Shown here piece after piece: positions 2,148-28,713 of a stretch of DNA of 33,902 bases. How positions within the stretch are numbered: position 1 is the first letter of the stretch; the number at the start of each line of letters is the position of its first letter. A program made the translations under genes and the position numbers. The DNA comes from Bacteroidota bacterium (lineage in GTDB: Bacteria; Bacteroidota; Bacteroidia; NS11-12g; UBA955): NCBI GenBank assembly GCA_030833525.1, contig JAURGZ010000017.1, positions 1-33,902 on the forward strand, in the 5' to 3' direction. The notes under the pieces were generated by a model. The model ran no database searches and had not been told where the DNA came from. It worked only from the letters and a program-made list of their open reading frames with translations.

Positions 2148-2211
2148 AATCTTGCATTTTAAGGACAAGCAAGAGTAAACGTTGGGGCCTAATTTGGCGT
2201 CTTATTAGAGT

Positions 2212-3831
2212 ATGCCCGAACAAAAACCGGTTCAACGCCGAACCAATACCACCTTGAATGCCTACAGCGGCACATTCGGTAGAACCGAGGTGCTGCACCT
2301 GCTGCGTCGAACCTTGTTTGGGTTTGATTTTGCTCAAATCAAGGATTTCGAAAAACTCAGCCTGGAACAGGCCGTAGACACCTTGTTGACGGCCCCCAGT
2401 TCGGCCCCCACGCCTCCTTTGAACAATTACAGTTTGCGTACACCTGATCCCAATGTCAAGTTCGGCGAAACTTGGATAGATGCCCCTTGGGATGCCAATT
2501 TTGAAAATCAGCGCAAATTCAGTTTGAAGGCATGGCTCTTTCAACAAGCGGCTAAAAAGAGCCATTCGCTGCATGAGAAAATGGCTTTGTTTTGGCACCA
2601 TCATTTTGCCACAGAGACATTGGTGGTGAACCTGGCGGTCAATTCATACAGCCACCATACCCTCTTGCGCACCCATGCCTTTGGGAATTTCAAATCCTTC
2701 GTGCGAGCCATTACCATCGATTCGGCGATGCTCGACTATTTGAACGGTCGGTTGAATACCAAAAAGGCCCCAGATGAAAACTACGCACGGGAGTTGCAGG
2801 AGCTGTTCACCCTGGGCAAGGGAAGTGATTCTCAGTACACCGAAGACGATGTCAAGGCCATGGCTCGCGTGCTCACGGGCTGGACGGTCAATTTCTTGAA
2901 TAAGCCTTATCCTTCGGCCTTCGTGAGTCAAAATCACGACAGCAACGACAAGTTGTTTTCGACCTTCTATGGCCAAAACATTTTGAAGGGTCGCACCGGG
3001 GCCACCGCCGGCGATTTGGAGCTCAATGATCTGATGGACATGCTCTTCTCTAAAGACACGGTGATTGCCAAACACATTTGCCGCAAGCTTTACCGCATGT
3101 TCGTGTATTACGACATCTCGGCCGATGAAGAAACAACCATCATTGAACCCCTGGCCCAATACTTCATCGATCAGAAATGGGAGATCAAACCGGTGCTGAA
3201 GAAGTTGTTCATGAGCGAGCATTTCTTTGATACCTTGAACCAAAGTTGCATCATCAAAGATCCCATTTCTCATCTGGCTGGTTTCTTGCGCCAAATGCAA
3301 ATGGAATACCCCAACAACGACGTCGATACCGAGTATAGCATTTATCAATTGGGTCGTTATTATGGCGAATTGCTCCAGCTCGATTTGGGTGATCCTCCAA
3401 ACGTATCGGGCTGGTCAGCCTATTACCAAGCTCCCTTGTACCATCGTACTTGGATCAACGCCGATACCTTCCCTAAGCGCAACCAGTTCTGTGATTTCTT
3501 GCTCTATGTGGGCTATGTCAAGAACGGTTATAAGTTCGCGGTTGACCCCATGTCTGTCATGGCTCAAACCAGCAACCCAGTCAATCCAGATGATTTGATT
3601 GCCGATTTATGCACGTGGCTCTTAGCCATGCCGCTCACCTCGACCAAAAAGGCTGAATTGAAAGCTATACTGCTGCCCGGTGGTATTCCCGATTACAACT
3701 GGAGCGATGCTTGGTATGCCGCCAACGACCCTCAAAATGCTGACCATGCTGCGCAAAAAGCGGCGGTCTTGTCCAAGTCTCAAGCCTTGTTGAAGGCCAT
3801 TACCAACCTCGCAGAATATCAACTTTCCTAA
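2212..3831 (+). CDS. DUF1800 family protein without a signal peptide
   Basis: 539 residues, typical of DUF1800. Family signatures: MALFWHHHFAT near 124-134, ENYARELQELFTLG near 189-202, GWTVNF shortly after, and DPPNVSGW near 394-401. The biochemical function of the family is not established. An in-frame TAG at 2206-2208 directly precedes the start, so no longer N-terminus is hidden, and the first 50 residues contain no hydrophobic segment. The protein therefore has no Sec or Tat signal of its own. It sits 5 nt upstream of the DUF1501 gene, its usual partner, which does carry an export signal. Confidence 0.9.
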   Translation: MPEQKPVQRRTNTTLNAYSGTFGRTEVLHLLRRTLFGFDFAQIKDFEKLSLEQAVDTLLTAPSSAPTPPLNNYSLRTPDPNVKFGETWIDAPWDANFENQRKFSLKAWLFQQAAKKSHSLHEKMALFWHHHFATETLVVNLAVNSYSHHTLLRTHAFGNFKSFVRAITIDSAMLDYLNGRLNTKKAPDENYARELQELFTLGKGSDSQYTEDDVKAMARVLTGWTVNFLNKPYPSAFVSQNHDSNDKLFSTFYGQNILKGRTGATAGDLELNDLMDMLFSKDTVIAKHICRKLYRMFVYYDISADEETTIIEPLAQYFIDQKWEIKPVLKKLFMSEHFFDTLNQSCIIKDPISHLAGFLRQMQMEYPNNDVDTEYSIYQLGRYYGELLQLDLGDPPNVSGWSAYYQAPLYHRTWINADTFPKRNQFCDFLLYVGYVKNGYKFAVDPMSVMAQTSNPVNPDDLIADLCTWLLAMPLTSTKKAELKAILLPGGIPDYNWSDAWYAANDPQNADHAAQKAAVLSKSQALLKAITNLAEYQLS

Positions 3832-3836
3832 ACGCC

Positions 3837-5414
3837 ATGAAAAGAAGATCGTTTTTAAAAGCCAGTTCGGCCGCTACTGTGGCGTTTGGAGCCTACAAGG
3901 CCAAAGCCTTGGCAGAATCTCCTTTGCTCGGGGCGTTGCGCCGAAGAGGGAATGCCAACGACCATATTTTGGTTTTGATACAGCTCAACGGGGGAAACGA
4001 CGGGTTGAATACCCTGATCCCGCTGGACCAATACAACAATTTGAGCAAAGCACGTACTCACGTGCTCATTCCTGATACCAAGGTGGCCAGTTTGAAAGGC
4101 TATTCTGGCACCGGCATTCACCCGGCATTGACGGGTATGAAAAGCCTGTTTGACAACGGCTTGGTTTCAGCGGTACATTCGGTGGGTTATCCGCAGCCGA
4201 ATTTTTCTCACTTTCGCTCGACCGACATCTGGATGAGCGGTTCAGATAGCAACGAAACTTGGACCACAGGCTGGATGGGTCGCTACCTCGACCAGCGTTT
4301 TCCTGGATTTCCAGAAGATTACCCCAACGCCGACATGCCTGATCCCTTGGGCATTCAAATTGGAAACGCGGTTTCCATGACCTTCATGGGGTCAGAGGCG
4401 AATATGGGCATGGTGCTTTCCAGTGTAGATGCCTTTTATGATTTGGTAGCGGGAGGCGATGCGAGCGGTTCGACACCCAGCACCCCCGCTGAAGAAGAAT
4501 TGGCTTATTTGCGCATGTTGGCGGCCCAAACGAATGCCTTTACCGATGTGGTCAAAGACGCCGCAAGCAAGGGTAAAAATCTATCAACCAAATATCCCAA
4601 CGGCAACGGCTTGGCCGATCAATTGAAAATTGTAGCCAAGTTGATCAACGGCGGTCTGAAAACGCCGGTTTACATGGTTTCGATGGGCGGTTTTGACACC
4701 CATGCCAACCAGGTCGATACCAGCGATACTTCCAAGGGTAGCCATGCCAACTTGATGAAAACCTTAGGCGATGCCGTCTTGGCCTTCCAAGATGACTTGC
4801 AGCTGTTGGGCCATGCCGATCGCGTTGCGGGAATGACTTTCTCGGAGTTCGGTCGCCGCATCATGGACAATGCCAGCAACGGTACCGATCACGGTGCCGC
4901 TGCGCCCCTATTTGTTTTTGGCACAGGGGTTCAATCGGGTATCATAGGGAAAAACCCCACCATTGCTTCTACGGTAACGGTCAACGACAACGTTCCCATG
5001 CAATTTGATTTTCGTCAGGTCTATGCCAGCGTGCTGCAAGATTGGTTTGAGTTGAGTCCCGAGGAAGTGAATGCGGCCATGGGAGGCAAGACCTTCAACA
5101 CCTTGCCCATCTTCAAATCAAATCCAGCGGGCTTGGAAGATTATTTGGACTTGGTGAGCCGCATTTCGATCAGCGAACCCTACCCAAACCCGGCCATCGA
5201 AGCCTGCAAGGTGCGCATTTCTAGCGATGGGGGTCAGGTAGAATTGAAGTTGTTTGATCCATTGGGCCGCGAATTGCGGGTGCTCTTGGATGAGCGCGTG
5301 GTGCCCGGTGAGCAGGAGATCGAAGTTGATTTGCGCGGACTTAGACCCGGCAATTACGTGTTGCAATTGGCGCAAGGTCCCAATCGCCAAAGCCGCATCA
5401 TCAGCAAGCGCTAA
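3837..5414 (+). CDS. DUF1501 family protein with Tat signal and T9SS C-terminal sorting domain
   Basis: 525 residues. The N-terminus has a textbook twin-arginine motif (R3 R4 S F L K) followed by a weakly hydrophobic stretch ending AKALA near residue 26. Family motifs of DUF1501, which is related to the sulfatase/alkaline-phosphatase fold: GGNDGLN at 52-58, GGFDTHANQ at 284-292 and FSEFGRR at 335-341. The C-terminal 75-80 residues are a type A T9SS sorting domain beginning EPYPNPA (Y449), then a beta-sandwich with DPLGRELR and LRPGNYVLQL, ending in a basic tail. The expected route is the Tat system, then the outer-membrane T9SS to the cell surface. It is translated 5 nt after the DUF1800 gene. 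Confidence 0.9.
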   Translation: MKRRSFLKASSAATVAFGAYKAKALAESPLLGALRRRGNANDHILVLIQLNGGNDGLNTLIPLDQYNNLSKARTHVLIPDTKVASLKGYSGTGIHPALTGMKSLFDNGLVSAVHSVGYPQPNFSHFRSTDIWMSGSDSNETWTTGWMGRYLDQRFPGFPEDYPNADMPDPLGIQIGNAVSMTFMGSEANMGMVLSSVDAFYDLVAGGDASGSTPSTPAEEELAYLRMLAAQTNAFTDVVKDAASKGKNLSTKYPNGNGLADQLKIVAKLINGGLKTPVYMVSMGGFDTHANQVDTSDTSKGSHANLMKTLGDAVLAFQDDLQLLGHADRVAGMTFSEFGRRIMDNASNGTDHGAAAPLFVFGTGVQSGIIGKNPTIASTVTVNDNVPMQFDFRQVYASVLQDWFELSPEEVNAAMGGKTFNTLPIFKSNPAGLEDYLDLVSRISISEPYPNPAIEACKVRISSDGGQVELKLFDPLGRELRVLLDERVVPGEQEIEVDLRGLRPGNYVLQLAQGPNRQSRIISKR

Positions 5415-5513: not shown

Positions 5514-5585
5514 TGCCCGATCGTCTAATTGGCAGGACAGCAGATTTTGGTTCTGTACGTCTAGGTTCGAGTCCTAGTCGGGCAA
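5514..5585 (+). tRNA. tRNA-Gln (TTG)
   Basis: A 72-nt cloverleaf. The acceptor TGCCCGA pairs fully with TCGGGCA. The anticodon loop TTTTGGT gives TTG, and the T loop is TTCGAGT. The discriminator is A and CCA is not encoded. It lies between the DUF1501 gene and prs. No hairpin terminator separates it from prs 55 nt downstream, so readthrough into prs is plausible. Confidence 0.93.
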
Positions 5586-5640
5586 CAAAAAAGTTTGATG
5601 ATATCCTTGGCGAATGCCTTGAGAGACAGTAGAACCCATT

Positions 5641-24820: not shown

Positions 24821-25516
24821 ATGGAAATGATTCGTTCGATTCTTGGGTCCTGCCTGCGTGATTTTTTCTATGCGCCTATTTGTTGCCAATGTTCCAGGGC
24901 CCTCGAAAGCCCGGTTTCTCCCTTGTGCTTGTCTTGCGAACTGCGGCTTCCTTATGCGTGCCGGACCTTTGGCCAGACCCACAATTTGCAGGCGCGATTG
25001 GCAGGTCGAACGCGTTTGGCTGCCTCGGGCTATTTTCTGGAATTTCGAAAAGGCTCGAGTGGGGCTCAATTGATTCATCAAATAAAATATGACACGGCTC
25101 TGAACCTGGCTCAGTATTGGGCACAAGTTTGGTCTCGAAGTCTAACGTTCGAAGGCATTTGGCAAAAAAGCATTTTGGTTTCGGTGCCTCCCAATCGCTG
25201 GAAATCGAGGTTGAGGGGTTACCACGCCGCTTGTGAATTGGCCGATTATTTGGGGGAGTATTTAGGCCTAGATGTAAATCATAACTTATTGAATAGAAAA
25301 TGGATAACTCGATCTCAGACCCGCTTGGGACGGTCCGATCGCTGGGACAACTTACAGGGCGTTTACCGCTGGAGCGGAGCCCCCATTCCCGATACTCCCT
25401 TGATCTTGGTAGACGACGTGGTGACCACCGGTGCGACAGTTGAAGCTTGCCTGAAAATCTTGCAAAAGCAGACGGCCCAACCTCTAGGCTTGTTGAGCTT
25501 GGCCTATACGGTTTAA
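24821..25516 (+). CDS. comF: ComF family protein (phosphoribosyltransferase fold)
   Basis: 231 residues. An N-terminal zinc-type cysteine cluster (C21, C22, C24 and C36, C39) is followed by a phosphoribosyltransferase domain with the PRPP loop VDDVVTTGAT at 197-206. ComF/GntX proteins are associated with DNA uptake during natural transformation, but their biochemical role is not settled. No other competence gene is in the window. A second in-frame ATG two codons later is possible. The next gene begins 38 nt downstream with its own promoter. Confidence 0.9.
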   Translation: MEMIRSILGSCLRDFFYAPICCQCSRALESPVSPLCLSCELRLPYACRTFGQTHNLQARLAGRTRLAASGYFLEFRKGSSGAQLIHQIKYDTALNLAQYWAQVWSRSLTFEGIWQKSILVSVPPNRWKSRLRGYHAACELADYLGEYLGLDVNHNLLNRKWITRSQTRLGRSDRWDNLQGVYRWSGAPIPDTPLILVDDVVTTGATVEACLKILQKQTAQPLGLLSLAYTV

Positions 25517-25532
25517 GCCCGATAAAAAACCG

Positions 25533-25540
25533 TATTTTTG
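25533..25540 (+). promoter_or_regulatory. TAnnTTTG -7 box for the Calx-beta protein gene
   Basis: TATTTTTG is an exact match. It is 17 nt after TTTA (25512-25515), close to a -33 TTTG. It ends 14 nt before ATG 25555, giving a short leader of about 10 nt. Confidence 0.5.
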
Positions 25541-25554
25541 AATCTACGAGTATT

Positions 25555-28500
25555 ATGAAAAAGTTTGCCCTCGCCATTTTGGCTTTGTTGGCCGGTCAAT
25601 TGACCGCTCAGATCAATCCTTTCGGTTTGGCTGGAATTTCCGTTCCCCAGTACATGGTGAGCGGAACGAGTAACCGCATTCCTGTGGTATTTCGCATGCG
25701 GGTTTTCGGTCTGCAGCCCAATACCCAGTATCAGTATGTGACCCGCGCCATCACTTCGGCTGATTTTGGTAGCACCACTTTGGTTTCTGGAGCGGGAAAT
25801 GCCTTCTACTTCAATTCCAACGGGAACATCAAGTATTTGACCACTGCGGGTATCAACAGCAGCAACCAAAGTGACACCTTCACCACCGACATGTTTGGTG
25901 ATTATGAGGGTTGGTTTGGCATTTCTCAAACGGGCAACTCGCGCTTCAATGCCGGTAGCCACATCTACCCCCATATTGTCGCCGTAAGCTTGAACAAACA
26001 AGACACCTTGCGGGCTTATTGCAGCGATTCCATTACCGTACTGGCTTTTGGATCTGGCAGTGGAGATTGTTCGGCCATTTGGGGCGAGAGCCAAGCAGCA
26101 GCCAAATCAGTAGTAGCCTTGTGGGACGATGCCAATGGTCCAATGAGCGGCCAGCGGCCTTTGGCCATGACCATGGTTGAATCGATGGGATTGACCAACT
26201 TCACCAGCCAAGCCTCATTTTACTCGAGCAACGTATCGGGTGTGAAAGGCAACTGGGGTACCATTTTCCCAAATAACTTGAGCAAAGGCATCAAGGCTGT
26301 TTCCAACTATTCTTTCAAAGACAACAAATTGGTTCATGCCAATACCGATGCTGACGGCATTTGGGGTCCCGATAAAATCAATACCGTTAATGCCAGCAAT
26401 GGTTCTACCGCTGTTAAATTGAGCAACGATGCGGCGGCCCTGGTACCCACCAAAATCGAATTCTGGGCCCGTACCAGCAATACCGCCGAAGGCAAAACCA
26501 GCCACCAAATCTTCGTATCGCGCAAGTACTCGAATGACACGAATCAGTCGGTGCGCATCAGCTTGGTGGGTGGAACAGCAACGGCTAGCAAGGATTTTTC
26601 TATCAGCATGCCTCAAACCTTGGTCTTCAAGGCGGGTGCGGCTGTTCTTGATACCCTAACGCTAACTATTGACGATGACAACATTCAAGAAGGGGATGAA
26701 ACCGTCGTTTTCCGTTTGGACCAGGCACAGAATTGCACCATTGGAACCGAGGTGGCCCACACCATCACCATCGCCGATAACGATACTGCTACCATTTCGG
26801 TTCAACCCCTGAGCATTGTCAAAGAAAATGCCGGTACTATTGGTGTATGGGTGAAATTCGACAAGCCTGTTTCCAAGGCTTCTAAACTGCAATTGATTGT
26901 CAAGCGCCAAGGTGACTCAACCTTGATTCCCGCTGAATTCAAGTTGGGTGCTAGCGAGCGCGACTCGATCTTTGACTTGGGAACTGAAAACGGTGCAGAC
27001 AGCATCATGATTTTCGCTAAAATTTCTGATGACATCAAAGCCGACCCCAACGATACGGTGATCTTGGCTCTGCGTCAGCTCAGCGGCAACTGCTTAGTTT
27101 CATCTGACAGTTTGGCCACCTTGGTCATGTTGGATAATGACGGTCCTTCTTACATTCAGTTCGTAGACAATAAGATCACCGTAAACGAAACCGATGCCAG
27201 CTTCAAGGTGAAAATCAAGGTGATCAGCAAAACCGATGCTGGGGGAGACTTCACCTTGCGTTTGTTGCCCAACTTGAGCACGGCTAAAGAGGGTTCAGAC
27301 TTTACATTCAACCCCACTTCTAAAATCATCAACATCAACAGCAATACGCCTGATGTCATTGAGATAACGGTTTCCATCAAAGACGACACCGAATACGAAC
27401 CCAGCGAAACCATCAAGTTTGGTTTGGGCAAGCTGAGCAACGTAGTCATCACAACTCCTGATACTTTCTACGTAACCATGTTGAACGATGATATGCCCAT
27501 GTACACCATAGGCCAAATCAATAACCAGAGCGGTGCCGCCATGACGGCTGATTCTTTGGGTGTTCGCTGCCGCGTTCGCGGTACCGTTCACAGCAGCAAC
27601 ATGCGCAGCGGCTCCATGAGCTTTACCATCGCCGATGCTACCGGTGGCATGGGTGTATACAGCACCAATTTCTTCGGGTACTCGCCACAAGTAGGTGACT
27701 CTGTCTTGATTCAGGGCAAAGTGGGTCAGTTCATGGGCTTGGTTCAAATGGACAACTTGGATACGGTTATTTTGATTGCCAACAACCGCAATTTGACCGC
27801 CAAAACCCAGGTGACTCAGGTTGATGAGAGCACCGAAAGCCAATTGGTTTGGTTCCGTCGGGTGAAGTTGGTAGACCCCAGCGAGTGGCCAACCACTGCC
27901 TTGGCTGCCAACAAATATGCCTATGTGCGCATCATGGGCACTACCGGTCGAATCGATACCTTGAACATCGATGCTGAAACCGATTTGGATGGCACAACCG
28001 CTCCCAGTGGCTACTTGAATATCACGGGTATTGGCATGCAGTTCGATGGTACCAACCCTTATAAGAGCAATTATGTTCTGACCCCACGCGGTTGGAGCGA
28101 TATCGTCAGTGCTCCCCTGCCCACTGTCAATTTTGCCAATGGCGTAACGGCTACCATCACCGAATTGGCTGACTCTTTCCGCATGGATTTCAGCATCATC
28201 CCCGCTGATGAAAACTTCACATTTGACGTTGCAGTAGCTTCGGCCACTGCTGTTTCACCCACCGATTACAACTTCGCTACCCGCACCATCAACGTAGCCA
28301 AGAACAACAGCGTGTATACCATTCGTTGCAACATCAGCGATGACGATGTGTACGACGGCGATAAGCAGATTGTGTTTGCCATTCGCAACGTGCAAGGTCC
28401 TGCTGCCATTGGCGCTGACTCCTTGTTGACTTTGACCATTACCGACAACGAGGTGAACGCTGTATTGAGTCTTTCAGCCTTGGGTGCTCAACTGTTCCCC

Positions 28501-28713
28501 AATCCTGCTCAGGATCAGGTTACCTTGCGTTCTTCACAAGACATTGCTTCGGTTGAAGTATTGGATATGCAGGGTCGTTTGGTTTTGGGTATGGACGCGC
28601 GCGGAAGCCGCGAATTGAGCATCGATACCCGCAACTTGAACGGAGTGTATGTTGTTCGTATGACCACCAGCTCAGGTGCTGTGGCCAGCGAGCTATTGCA
28701 AGTGCGTCGTTAA
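25555..28713 (+). CDS. Large secreted Calx-beta repeat protein with T9SS sorting domain
   Basis: 1052 residues. Signal peptide at 1-19 (ending LTAQ). An N-terminal beta-rich region (about 20-270) of unknown family is followed by three Calx-beta-like domains ending near 410 (IADNDTA), 530 (MLDNDGP) and 647 (MLNDDMP). Next is an OB-like region at about 649-760 (CRVRGTVHSSN, then VGDSVLIQGKVGQF), a fourth Calx-beta-like domain ending near 966 (ITDNEVN), and a type A T9SS domain from about 975 (LFPNPAQDQV). Acidic DND/DDD clusters fit calcium binding. It is probably a cell-surface adhesin or matrix protein; a nuclease or other catalytic motif was not found. Confidence 0.88.
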   Translation: MKKFALAILALLAGQLTAQINPFGLAGISVPQYMVSGTSNRIPVVFRMRVFGLQPNTQYQYVTRAITSADFGSTTLVSGAGNAFYFNSNGNIKYLTTAGINSSNQSDTFTTDMFGDYEGWFGISQTGNSRFNAGSHIYPHIVAVSLNKQDTLRAYCSDSITVLAFGSGSGDCSAIWGESQAAAKSVVALWDDANGPMSGQRPLAMTMVESMGLTNFTSQASFYSSNVSGVKGNWGTIFPNNLSKGIKAVSNYSFKDNKLVHANTDADGIWGPDKINTVNASNGSTAVKLSNDAAALVPTKIEFWARTSNTAEGKTSHQIFVSRKYSNDTNQSVRISLVGGTATASKDFSISMPQTLVFKAGAAVLDTLTLTIDDDNIQEGDETVVFRLDQAQNCTIGTEVAHTITIADNDTATISVQPLSIVKENAGTIGVWVKFDKPVSKASKLQLIVKRQGDSTLIPAEFKLGASERDSIFDLGTENGADSIMIFAKISDDIKADPNDTVILALRQLSGNCLVSSDSLATLVMLDNDGPSYIQFVDNKITVNETDASFKVKIKVISKTDAGGDFTLRLLPNLSTAKEGSDFTFNPTSKIININSNTPDVIEITVSIKDDTEYEPSETIKFGLGKLSNVVITTPDTFYVTMLNDDMPMYTIGQINNQSGAAMTADSLGVRCRVRGTVHSSNMRSGSMSFTIADATGGMGVYSTNFFGYSPQVGDSVLIQGKVGQFMGLVQMDNLDTVILIANNRNLTAKTQVTQVDESTESQLVWFRRVKLVDPSEWPTTALAANKYAYVRIMGTTGRIDTLNIDAETDLDGTTAPSGYLNITGIGMQFDGTNPYKSNYVLTPRGWSDIVSAPLPTVNFANGVTATITELADSFRMDFSIIPADENFTFDVAVASATAVSPTDYNFATRTINVAKNNSVYTIRCNISDDDVYDGDKQIVFAIRNVQGPAAIGADSLLTLTITDNEVNAVLSLSALGAQLFPNPAQDQVTLRSSQDIASVEVLDMQGRLVLGMDARGSRELSIDTRNLNGVYVVRMTTSSGAVASELLQVRR

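What the first reader, a model, noticed from the sequence alone, without database searches (positions are those of the whole stretch)
2212..5414. DUF1501 protein carries both a Tat signal and a T9SS domain, next to a signal-less DUF1800 partner
T9SS cargo usually reaches the periplasm by Sec, but this DUF1501 protein has a strong RRSFLK twin-arginine motif and a C-terminal type A sorting domain. Its partner DUF1800 has no signal at all; an in-frame stop at 2206-2208 rules out a hidden N-terminus. The Tat system exports folded proteins and can carry a bound partner. The inference is that DUF1800 folds with DUF1501 and is carried out as a hitchhiker, and the complex or DUF1501 alone then goes to the surface.
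Basis: partly seen in the sequence, partly recalled or inferred. Interest (0 to 1): 0.58.

Follow-up and report, generated by a model that had tools for sequence, protein, structure and literature searches.

The report
Tat-exported protein pair, surface-bound
Two neighbouring genes appear to make a protein pair that folds together inside the cell, leaves through the export gate for folded proteins on one partner's pass, and is then tagged for the cell surface by a second system; the parts are known, the combination seems undescribed and is untested at the bench.

Summary
Window 2212-3831 is a DUF1800 protein with no export signal; 3837-5414 is a DUF1501 protein with a twin-arginine (RRSFLK) signal and a C-terminal type IX sorting domain (CTD). 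The genome has TatC, SprA and PorU. Among 36 CTD places in this genome, DUF1501 is the only one with an N-terminal twin-arginine box.

This is not a local oddity. The pair is conserved across Bacteroidota and occurs, in the same gene order, in Proteobacteria, Actinomycetota and Deinococcota. DUF1800 is signal-less in nearly all Bacteroidota pairs, but has its own Sec- or lipoprotein-type signal in six of 14 readable plasmid pairs and three Bacteroidota pairs, so it can act outside the cytoplasm.

AlphaFold2 on an in-frame read-through of a close relative's pair (L210) gave pTM 0.86, implying a docked complex. A thiolase-DUF1800 control gave 0.59 but is confounded by a poorly modelled partner.

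Best reading: a Tat hitchhiker pair feeding T9SS, like PlcHR2 (Tat, then type II). Export is untested; a cytoplasmic-chaperone role for DUF1800 is the main rival.

New in passing: about half of the CTD-type DUF1800s keep an N-terminal twin-arginine box without a hydrophobic core; the window's genus has lost it.

The parts
2206..2208 (+). In-frame TAG stop immediately upstream of the DUF1800 start; no hidden N-terminal extension
   Evidence: sequence read directly
2212..3831 (+). DUF1800 protein, 539 aa, no Sec, Tat or lipoprotein signal and no CTD
3394..3453 (+). DUF1800 residues 395-414, most conserved loop (PPNVSGW..YYQ.P.Y...W); ordered in the DUF1501 fusion model, disordered in the thiolase control; candidate interface
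3837..5414 (+). DUF1501 protein, 525 aa, alkaline-phosphatase-superfamily fold
3837..3914 (+). Predicted Tat signal peptide, residues 1-26 (cleavage after Ala-26 inferred by eye), with lysines in the c-region
3843..3860 (+). Twin-arginine box RRSFLK
5181..5411 (+). C-terminal type A sorting domain (T9SS CTD)

Best explanation
DUF1800 and DUF1501 are made from adjacent genes and form a 1:1 complex in the cytoplasm (predicted). DUF1501, a metal-hydrolase-like protein of the alkaline phosphatase superfamily, folds there, and its twin-arginine signal takes the complex through Tat, with signal-less DUF1800 as a hitchhiker (inferred). In the periplasm the signal is cut and the CTD of DUF1501 engages the type IX system, bringing at least DUF1501, possibly the whole complex, to the cell surface (inferred).
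For: Shown: signals, families and machinery. Shown: 99 of 105 intact long (>= 500 aa) DUF1501 genes have an intact DUF1800 directly upstream, gap <= 30 nt in 92 of the 99; of the other 6, all at contig edges, 5 have a cut DUF1800 and 1 has too little sequence. Shown: DUF1800 has no signal-like hydrophobic stretch in 132 of 134 non-redundant long pairs, while 131 of the 134 DUF1501 partners have an RR or RK box with a more hydrophobic stretch behind it. Shown: DUF1800 homologues in the same kind of pair carry their own Sec- or lipoprotein-type signal in 6 of 14 readable plasmid loci and in 3 of 29 short Bacteroidota pairs; one has a GbpA_2 domain, known from a secreted GlcNAc-binding protein. 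Predicted: AlphaFold2 of the in-frame read-through of L210 DUF1800-DUF1501 (DUF1800 83% identical) gives mean pLDDT 90.8, pTM 0.86 over 1068 residues; for two undocked halves of this size I estimate about 0.55 (my arithmetic). A conserved DUF1800 loop disordered without DUF1501 is ordered with it. Precedent: PlcH-PlcR2 leaves as a folded heterodimer by Tat, then type II.
Against: No export data. Complex formation also fits a chaperone that stays in the cytoplasm. The AlphaFold alignment was flawed: the last ~118 residues of 51 unpaired DUF1800 rows were misaligned into the DUF1501 half. The control (thiolase-DUF1800, pTM 0.59) had a poorly modelled thiolase half and only 4 paired rows. No fused DUF1800-DUF1501 gene was found among 80 loci. 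21 of 105 long DUF1501 boxes are RK, not RR. TatC gave no hit in 11 of the 129 genomes with DUF1501, three of them at least 97% complete. The fold searches say nothing on DUF1800.
Confidence: 0.6

Rival explanations
1. DUF1800 is a dedicated cytoplasmic chaperone or maturase: it binds pre-DUF1501, guards folding or metal loading, and stays inside when DUF1501 leaves by Tat (like NarJ, DmsD or NapD).
For: No signal on DUF1800; predicted complex; tight pairing. Tat substrates with dedicated cytoplasmic chaperones are well described.
Against: DUF1800 homologues with their own Sec- or lipoprotein-type signals exist in 6 of 14 readable plasmid loci and 3 of 29 short Bacteroidota pairs, which a cytoplasmic chaperone would not need. 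At about 540 aa it is large for such a chaperone.
Confidence: 0.22
2. DUF1501 is Tat-exported and T9SS-sorted alone; DUF1800 is an unrelated cytoplasmic enzyme that is merely co-transcribed.
For: Absence of any signal on DUF1800.
Against: Near-perfect co-occurrence and adjacency, the same order in other phyla, pTM 0.86.
Confidence: 0.08
3. The DUF1501 signal is read by Sec in practice, so the CTD cargo takes the ordinary Sec-T9SS route and no folded partner can be carried.
For: The window signal is under both curated Tat cut-offs; 21 of 105 long homologues have RK; 11 of 129 genomes with DUF1501 lack a TatC hit.
Against: R3 and F6 invariant in 53 homologues; a modest hydrophobic core; Lys, Arg or His 10-32 residues after the box in 122 of 131, a Sec-avoidance feature (recalled); 0 of the 35 other CTD places in the same genome has an N-terminal twin-arginine box, and 28 of the 30 with closed frames show a Sec-like hydrophobic stretch.
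Confidence: 0.1

Closest known systems
PlcH-PlcR2 of Pseudomonas aeruginosa (Tat, then Xcp type II)
   Same: Secreted phosphoesterase of the same broad fold superfamily (PLC-N 9gy2 is the top Foldseek match) with an accessory protein; described as leaving as a fully folded heterodimer by Tat and then through an outer-membrane system.
   Different: Outer-membrane step is type II, not T9SS; PlcR2 is 17 kDa and not known to resemble DUF1800 (not compared here); gene order is reversed (plcR downstream).
Tat hitchhiker complexes (E. coli hydrogenase 2, PaoABC)
   Same: One subunit bears the Tat signal; signal-less partners are carried as a folded complex (abstract start listed; reference titles).
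   Different: Redox cofactor enzymes that remain periplasmic (recalled); no CTD and no second secretion step.
T9SS type A cargo
   Same: C-terminal Por_Secre_tail domain and machinery in the genome.
   Different: Known cargo is described with a classical Sec signal; this one has a Tat signal.
DUF1800-DUF1501 pair next to bacterial chitin synthases
   Same: Same two families, adjacent; DUF1501 noted to carry a twin-arginine motif (passages of PMC5122149).
   Different: No CTD or T9SS mentioned; co-export of DUF1800 not proposed in the passages seen.
Remnant Tat signal peptides (NarG, bound by NarJ)
   Same: Twin-arginine-derived N-terminus retained on a protein that Tat does not export by that signal (passages).
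   Different: NarG is cytoplasmic-facing; the DUF1800 box has no recognisable hydrophobic part and no known chaperone.

Membership tests
Tat substrate (DUF1501) | RRxFLK box followed by a modest hydrophobic core | tested here: met
Tat substrate (DUF1501) | Score above curated Tat-signal models | tested here: not met
   PF10518 15.3 against 22.7; TIGR01409 16.4 against 16.7; these models also miss most homologues: 7 of 53 and 2 of 53 match at E <= 0.1
Tat substrate (DUF1501) | TatC in the genome | tested here: met
   198.5 bits
Tat substrate (DUF1501) | Export lost without TatC | not testable with these tools
   needs a bench experiment
T9SS type A cargo (DUF1501) | C-terminal sorting domain | tested here: met
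   E 7.2e-6, 26.6 bits, cut-off 27; 29.9 bits, over the cut-off, in the six-frame search; 51 of 53 homologues at E <= 0.1
T9SS type A cargo (DUF1501) | T9SS machinery in the genome | tested here: met
   SprA 2216.6 bits, PorU 917.7 bits
T9SS type A cargo (DUF1501) | Classical Sec signal peptide (as described for known cargo) | tested here: not met
   Twin-arginine signal instead; description of known cargo
T9SS type A cargo (DUF1501) | Secretion lost without T9SS | not testable with these tools
   needs a bench experiment
Tat hitchhiker complex | Exactly one partner carries a Tat signal | tested here: met
Tat hitchhiker complex | Partners form a stable complex before export | tested here: inconclusive
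   Predicted only, on the L210 relative: pTM 0.86; flawed alignment; confounded control 0.59
Tat hitchhiker complex | Co-translocation dependent on the partner's signal | not testable with these tools
   needs fractionation in partner and tat mutants
Alkaline phosphatase superfamily (DUF1501) | Superfamily fold | tested here: met
   Predicted model of L210: 7mw8 Z 18.6, 247 aligned, rmsd 3.3
Alkaline phosphatase superfamily (DUF1501) | Conserved Asp/His/Ser positions that could form a metal site | tested here: inconclusive
   D55, S124, H125, D130, D287, H289, D351, H352 invariant in 53; not superposed on a metal site
Remnant Tat signal (the window's DUF1800) | Twin-arginine box at the N-terminus without a working signal | tested here: not met
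   The window protein lacks the box; 63 of 134 non-redundant long-pair relatives have it, shuffle mean 0.86

The most novel reading that the evidence does not exclude
A folded DUF1800-DUF1501 heterodimer crosses the inner membrane by Tat and the outer membrane by T9SS, so that T9SS moves a non-covalent passenger that has no sorting domain; and in many relatives the hitchhiker keeps a core-less twin-arginine box (M[DNQK]RR[DEQ]F[LF]) that still works, as a docking or proofreading element used together with the partner's full Tat signal.
Probability: 0.18. Interest if true: 0.75.

Novelty: new variant of a known kind. Interest (0 to 1): 0.52.

Why it matters
T9SS cargo is described as arriving through Sec. 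A widespread, conserved Tat-CTD cargo with a carried partner would show that T9SS, like type II, accepts cargo already folded in the cytoplasm, and would give two very widespread unknown families (DUF1800, DUF1501) a place and a testable job. The core-less twin-arginine box on the hitchhiker of many relatives is a natural test of which part of a Tat signal does what.

Tried and rejected
Fused DUF1800-DUF1501 genes: none in 80 loci, and no DUF1800 frame over 647 aa among the matches in 197 genomes. TatC phylogenetic profile: uninformative, TatC is in 182 of 197. Literature: both DUF names together, 2 papers; Tat signal with T9SS and Bacteroidetes, 3 papers, listing seen only; at least two of twin-arginine, type IX secretion and DUF1501, 33 papers, 25 listed, passages of five of those read; none of what I saw describes a Tat-dependent T9SS cargo. 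'vestigial' with NarG and twin-arginine: none. Sequence relatives with solved structures: none at E <= 1 for DUF1800; three weak matches (E 0.55-0.91) to unrelated proteins for DUF1501. DUF1800 fold: the fold searches of both models were filled by the partner, so its fold is untested, not new. Thiolase control: planned as a clean negative; its partner half was modelled poorly (blocks of pLDDT 27-80, though it still matches thiolases at Z 20), so it only shows that DUF1800 is not docked onto anything by default. Phylogenetic independence of the box: 15 changes on a FastTree tree, so 63 counts are far fewer events. The box pattern itself fixes some columns (M, R, R/K, hydrophobic); only D/N/Q at -1, D/E/Q at x, the preference for F then L, and T/S at +5 are unforced.
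Full report
What is there. The window carries DUF1800 (2212-3831) and, five bases later, DUF1501 (3837-5414), both on the + strand. A TAG at 2206-2208 is in frame with the DUF1800 start, and no start codon lies between, so the protein cannot be longer at its N-terminus. DUF1501 starts MKRRSFLKASSAATVAFGAYKAKALA and ends in a Por_Secre_tail domain. In direct scans the sorting domain and the Tat signal fall below the curated cut-offs, mostly narrowly; the CTD passes in the six-frame search of the genome (29.9 bits). The genome (G000, 1.93 Mb in 93 contigs, 94% complete) has one DUF1501, one TatC, SprA and PorU.

Is Tat plus CTD unusual here? The genome has 36 places that match the CTD model at E <= 0.001, 30 of them over the cut-off. 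I read the other 35. None has a twin-arginine box near its N-terminus; one match further in (MPRRLVL in L191) lies behind an ordinary Sec-type start. Of the 30 with a closed 5' end, 28 have a Sec-like hydrophobic stretch; five frames run off a contig. So within this genome DUF1501 stands alone.

Is the pair general? DUF1501 was found in 129 of 197 relative genomes and DUF1800 in 129 of 197: both in 125, only DUF1501 in 4 (G053, G066, G120, G138), only DUF1800 in 4 (G042, G044 under the cut-off, G064, G104); G053 in fact has a truncated DUF1800 at a contig edge. I fetched 140 stretches; three further match places (in G060, G195 and G106) and the five matches under the cut-off were not fetched. 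They and the window held 136 intact DUF1501 frames, 105 of at least 500 aa ('long') and 31 shorter. Of the 105 long ones, 99 have an intact DUF1800 directly upstream; of the other six, all near contig edges, five have a cut DUF1800 and one has only 202 bases of upstream sequence; three short ones with more than 2.2 kb upstream have no DUF1800 there. Long DUF1501 boxes: 83 RR (72 plus 11 that my pattern first read as KR inside KRR), 21 RK, 1 neither. 'Long' mostly but not always means a recognised CTD: 51 of 53 in one aligned set match, whereas L045 (535 aa) does not.

Signals on DUF1800. Pooling with 80 named loci from genome contigs gave 196 intact pairs, 163 after removing DUF1800s at least 85% identical: 134 long and 29 short. 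Using the best mean hydropathy over 12 residues in the first 40, long DUF1800s have a median of 0.50 and only 2 of 134 exceed 1.6, while the stretch after the DUF1501 box has a median of 1.56. This is a simple score, not a trained signal predictor. Three of the 29 short pairs (L160, L162, L169) have DUF1800 with a plain Sec-type signal. Outside this set I read 15 of the 54 plasmid records that matched (families from the records' annotation for nine, from Pfam for five, by eye for L290). All 15 have DUF1800 then DUF1501, and all 15 DUF1501s have an RR box (in L294 and L296 just upstream of the annotated start). DUF1800 has its own Sec- or lipoprotein-type signal in 6 (Sphingomonas, Phyllobacterium, Novosphingobium, Paraburkholderia, Cupriavidus, Photobacterium), none in 8 (Persicobacter, Miltoncostaea, Vibrio, Azospirillum, Rhizobium, Paracoccus, Methylobacterium, Pseudoroseomonas); in Thermus the gene is broken by an insertion sequence. 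The Photobacterium DUF1800 also has a GbpA_2 domain. These signal calls were made by eye. If a family works outside the cytoplasm where it has a signal, its signal-less members beside a Tat-bearing partner are most simply carried out by that partner. This is an inference from relatives.

The complex. The two genes of the window are not in one frame, but in L210 (Bacteroidetes bacterium casp15-mb.148; DUF1800 83% identical) they are. Reading the stop as glycine gives one 1068-residue chain whose flexible linker is the Tat signal itself. With 17 paired and 110 unpaired rows AlphaFold2 gave pLDDT 90.8 and pTM 0.86, with pLDDT under 50 over most of 553-583. My estimate for two well-folded but undocked halves is near 0.55. 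Flaw: in 51 unpaired DUF1800 rows the last ~118 residues were aligned to the wrong half. Control: thiolase and DUF1800, in-frame neighbours in L229, gave pTM 0.59, but the thiolase half was modelled poorly and only 4 rows were paired. One comparison is suggestive: L229 DUF1800 residues 414-428, equal to window residues 398-412 and part of the most conserved loop of the family, have pLDDT about 48-57 in the control and 80-90 in the DUF1501 fusion. No coordinates could be inspected, so the interface itself is not mapped.

What DUF1501 is. The predicted fold is of the alkaline phosphatase superfamily: nucleotide pyrophosphatase 7mw8 at Z 18.6 over 247 residues, rmsd 3.3; phospholipase C PLC-N and choline sulfatase top the Foldseek list. 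Asp, Ser and His positions in the GGNDG, SHFR, GFDTH and GTDHG motifs are invariant in 53 sequences, which suggests a metal-dependent hydrolase; activity is inferred. Metal loading in the cytoplasm would be a reason to use Tat (established reasoning, not tested).

The core-less box. In 63 of 134 long pairs DUF1800 itself begins with a twin-arginine box, mostly with its first arginine at residue 3 (M-[DNQK]-R-R-[DEQ]-F-[LF]-[TS]), against a mean of 0.86 and a maximum of 5 in 500 shuffles of the N-termini; 0 of 29 short pairs have it. What follows is not hydrophobic (median 0.03 against 1.56 in DUF1501), and conservation drops at once. Some columns are fixed by my search pattern. On the tree the state changes at least 15 times, and the window's genus, which lacks the box, sits inside a box-bearing clade: it has most likely lost it. 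Retention of a box without its core across many genera suggests a function, perhaps docking on Tat or on a chaperone, as for the remnant Tat signal of NarG; decay in progress is the plain alternative.

Verdict. Observation confirmed; interpretation partly supported. The pair most likely works as a Tat hitchhiker complex, with DUF1501 then sorted by T9SS. The closest working analogue is PlcH-PlcR2, described as leaving by Tat as a folded heterodimer and then by type II (abstract and passages of PMC3601568); further Tat-then-type-II proteins are known in the same species (passages of PMC4899797). For T9SS the review passages I saw describe Sec signals only (PMC5445135). Within the searches named I saw no report of Tat cargo for T9SS; most subscription papers and bioRxiv preprints are outside that library.

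Noticed in passing
L210-L289 and L035-L174, DUF1800 N-termini (e.g. L229, L053, L238): About half of long-pair DUF1800s start with a twin-arginine box and no hydrophobic core (63 of 134); a possible remnant or functional part of a Tat signal.
   Followed up: partly
L160, L162, L169 (Bacteroidota); L292, L293, L296, L297, L300, L303 (plasmids): Pairs in which DUF1800 has its own Sec- or lipoprotein-type signal while DUF1501 keeps a Tat box.
   Followed up: partly
L303:2206-4197: Photobacterium DUF1800 with an N-terminal GbpA_2 domain (30.5 bits, cut-off 26.6), a hint of a link to chitin or GlcNAc surfaces.
   Followed up: no
L239, L242 (Puia): DUF1501 of about 430 aa without the C-terminal sorting-domain region although nested among long, CTD-type pairs: apparent loss of the CTD.
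   Followed up: no
L259:4447-6102, L268:6412-8067: A second gene that looks DUF1800-like by eye (552 aa each) beside the pair: L259 upstream begins MQRRDFLQLF, L268 downstream begins MPITPYTGPFG.
   Followed up: no
L135, L148: A DUF1501 subfamily that scores 514-546 bits to the Pfam model, is Tat-like and has no DUF1800 neighbour in the fetched stretch.
   Followed up: no
L295:1000-3005: Thermus thermophilus plasmid DUF1800 gene split by an IS982-family transposase.
   Followed up: no
window 5514-5586; 196-351: tRNA-Gln between DUF1501 and the next gene; tRNA-Met and tRNA-Glu on the other strand near the start of the window.
   Followed up: no
window 25447-28713: Another CTD-bearing protein in the window (frame of 1088 aa, CTD at 28492-28686), with an ordinary Sec-type start (MKKFALAILALLAGQLTAQ).
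   Followed up: no
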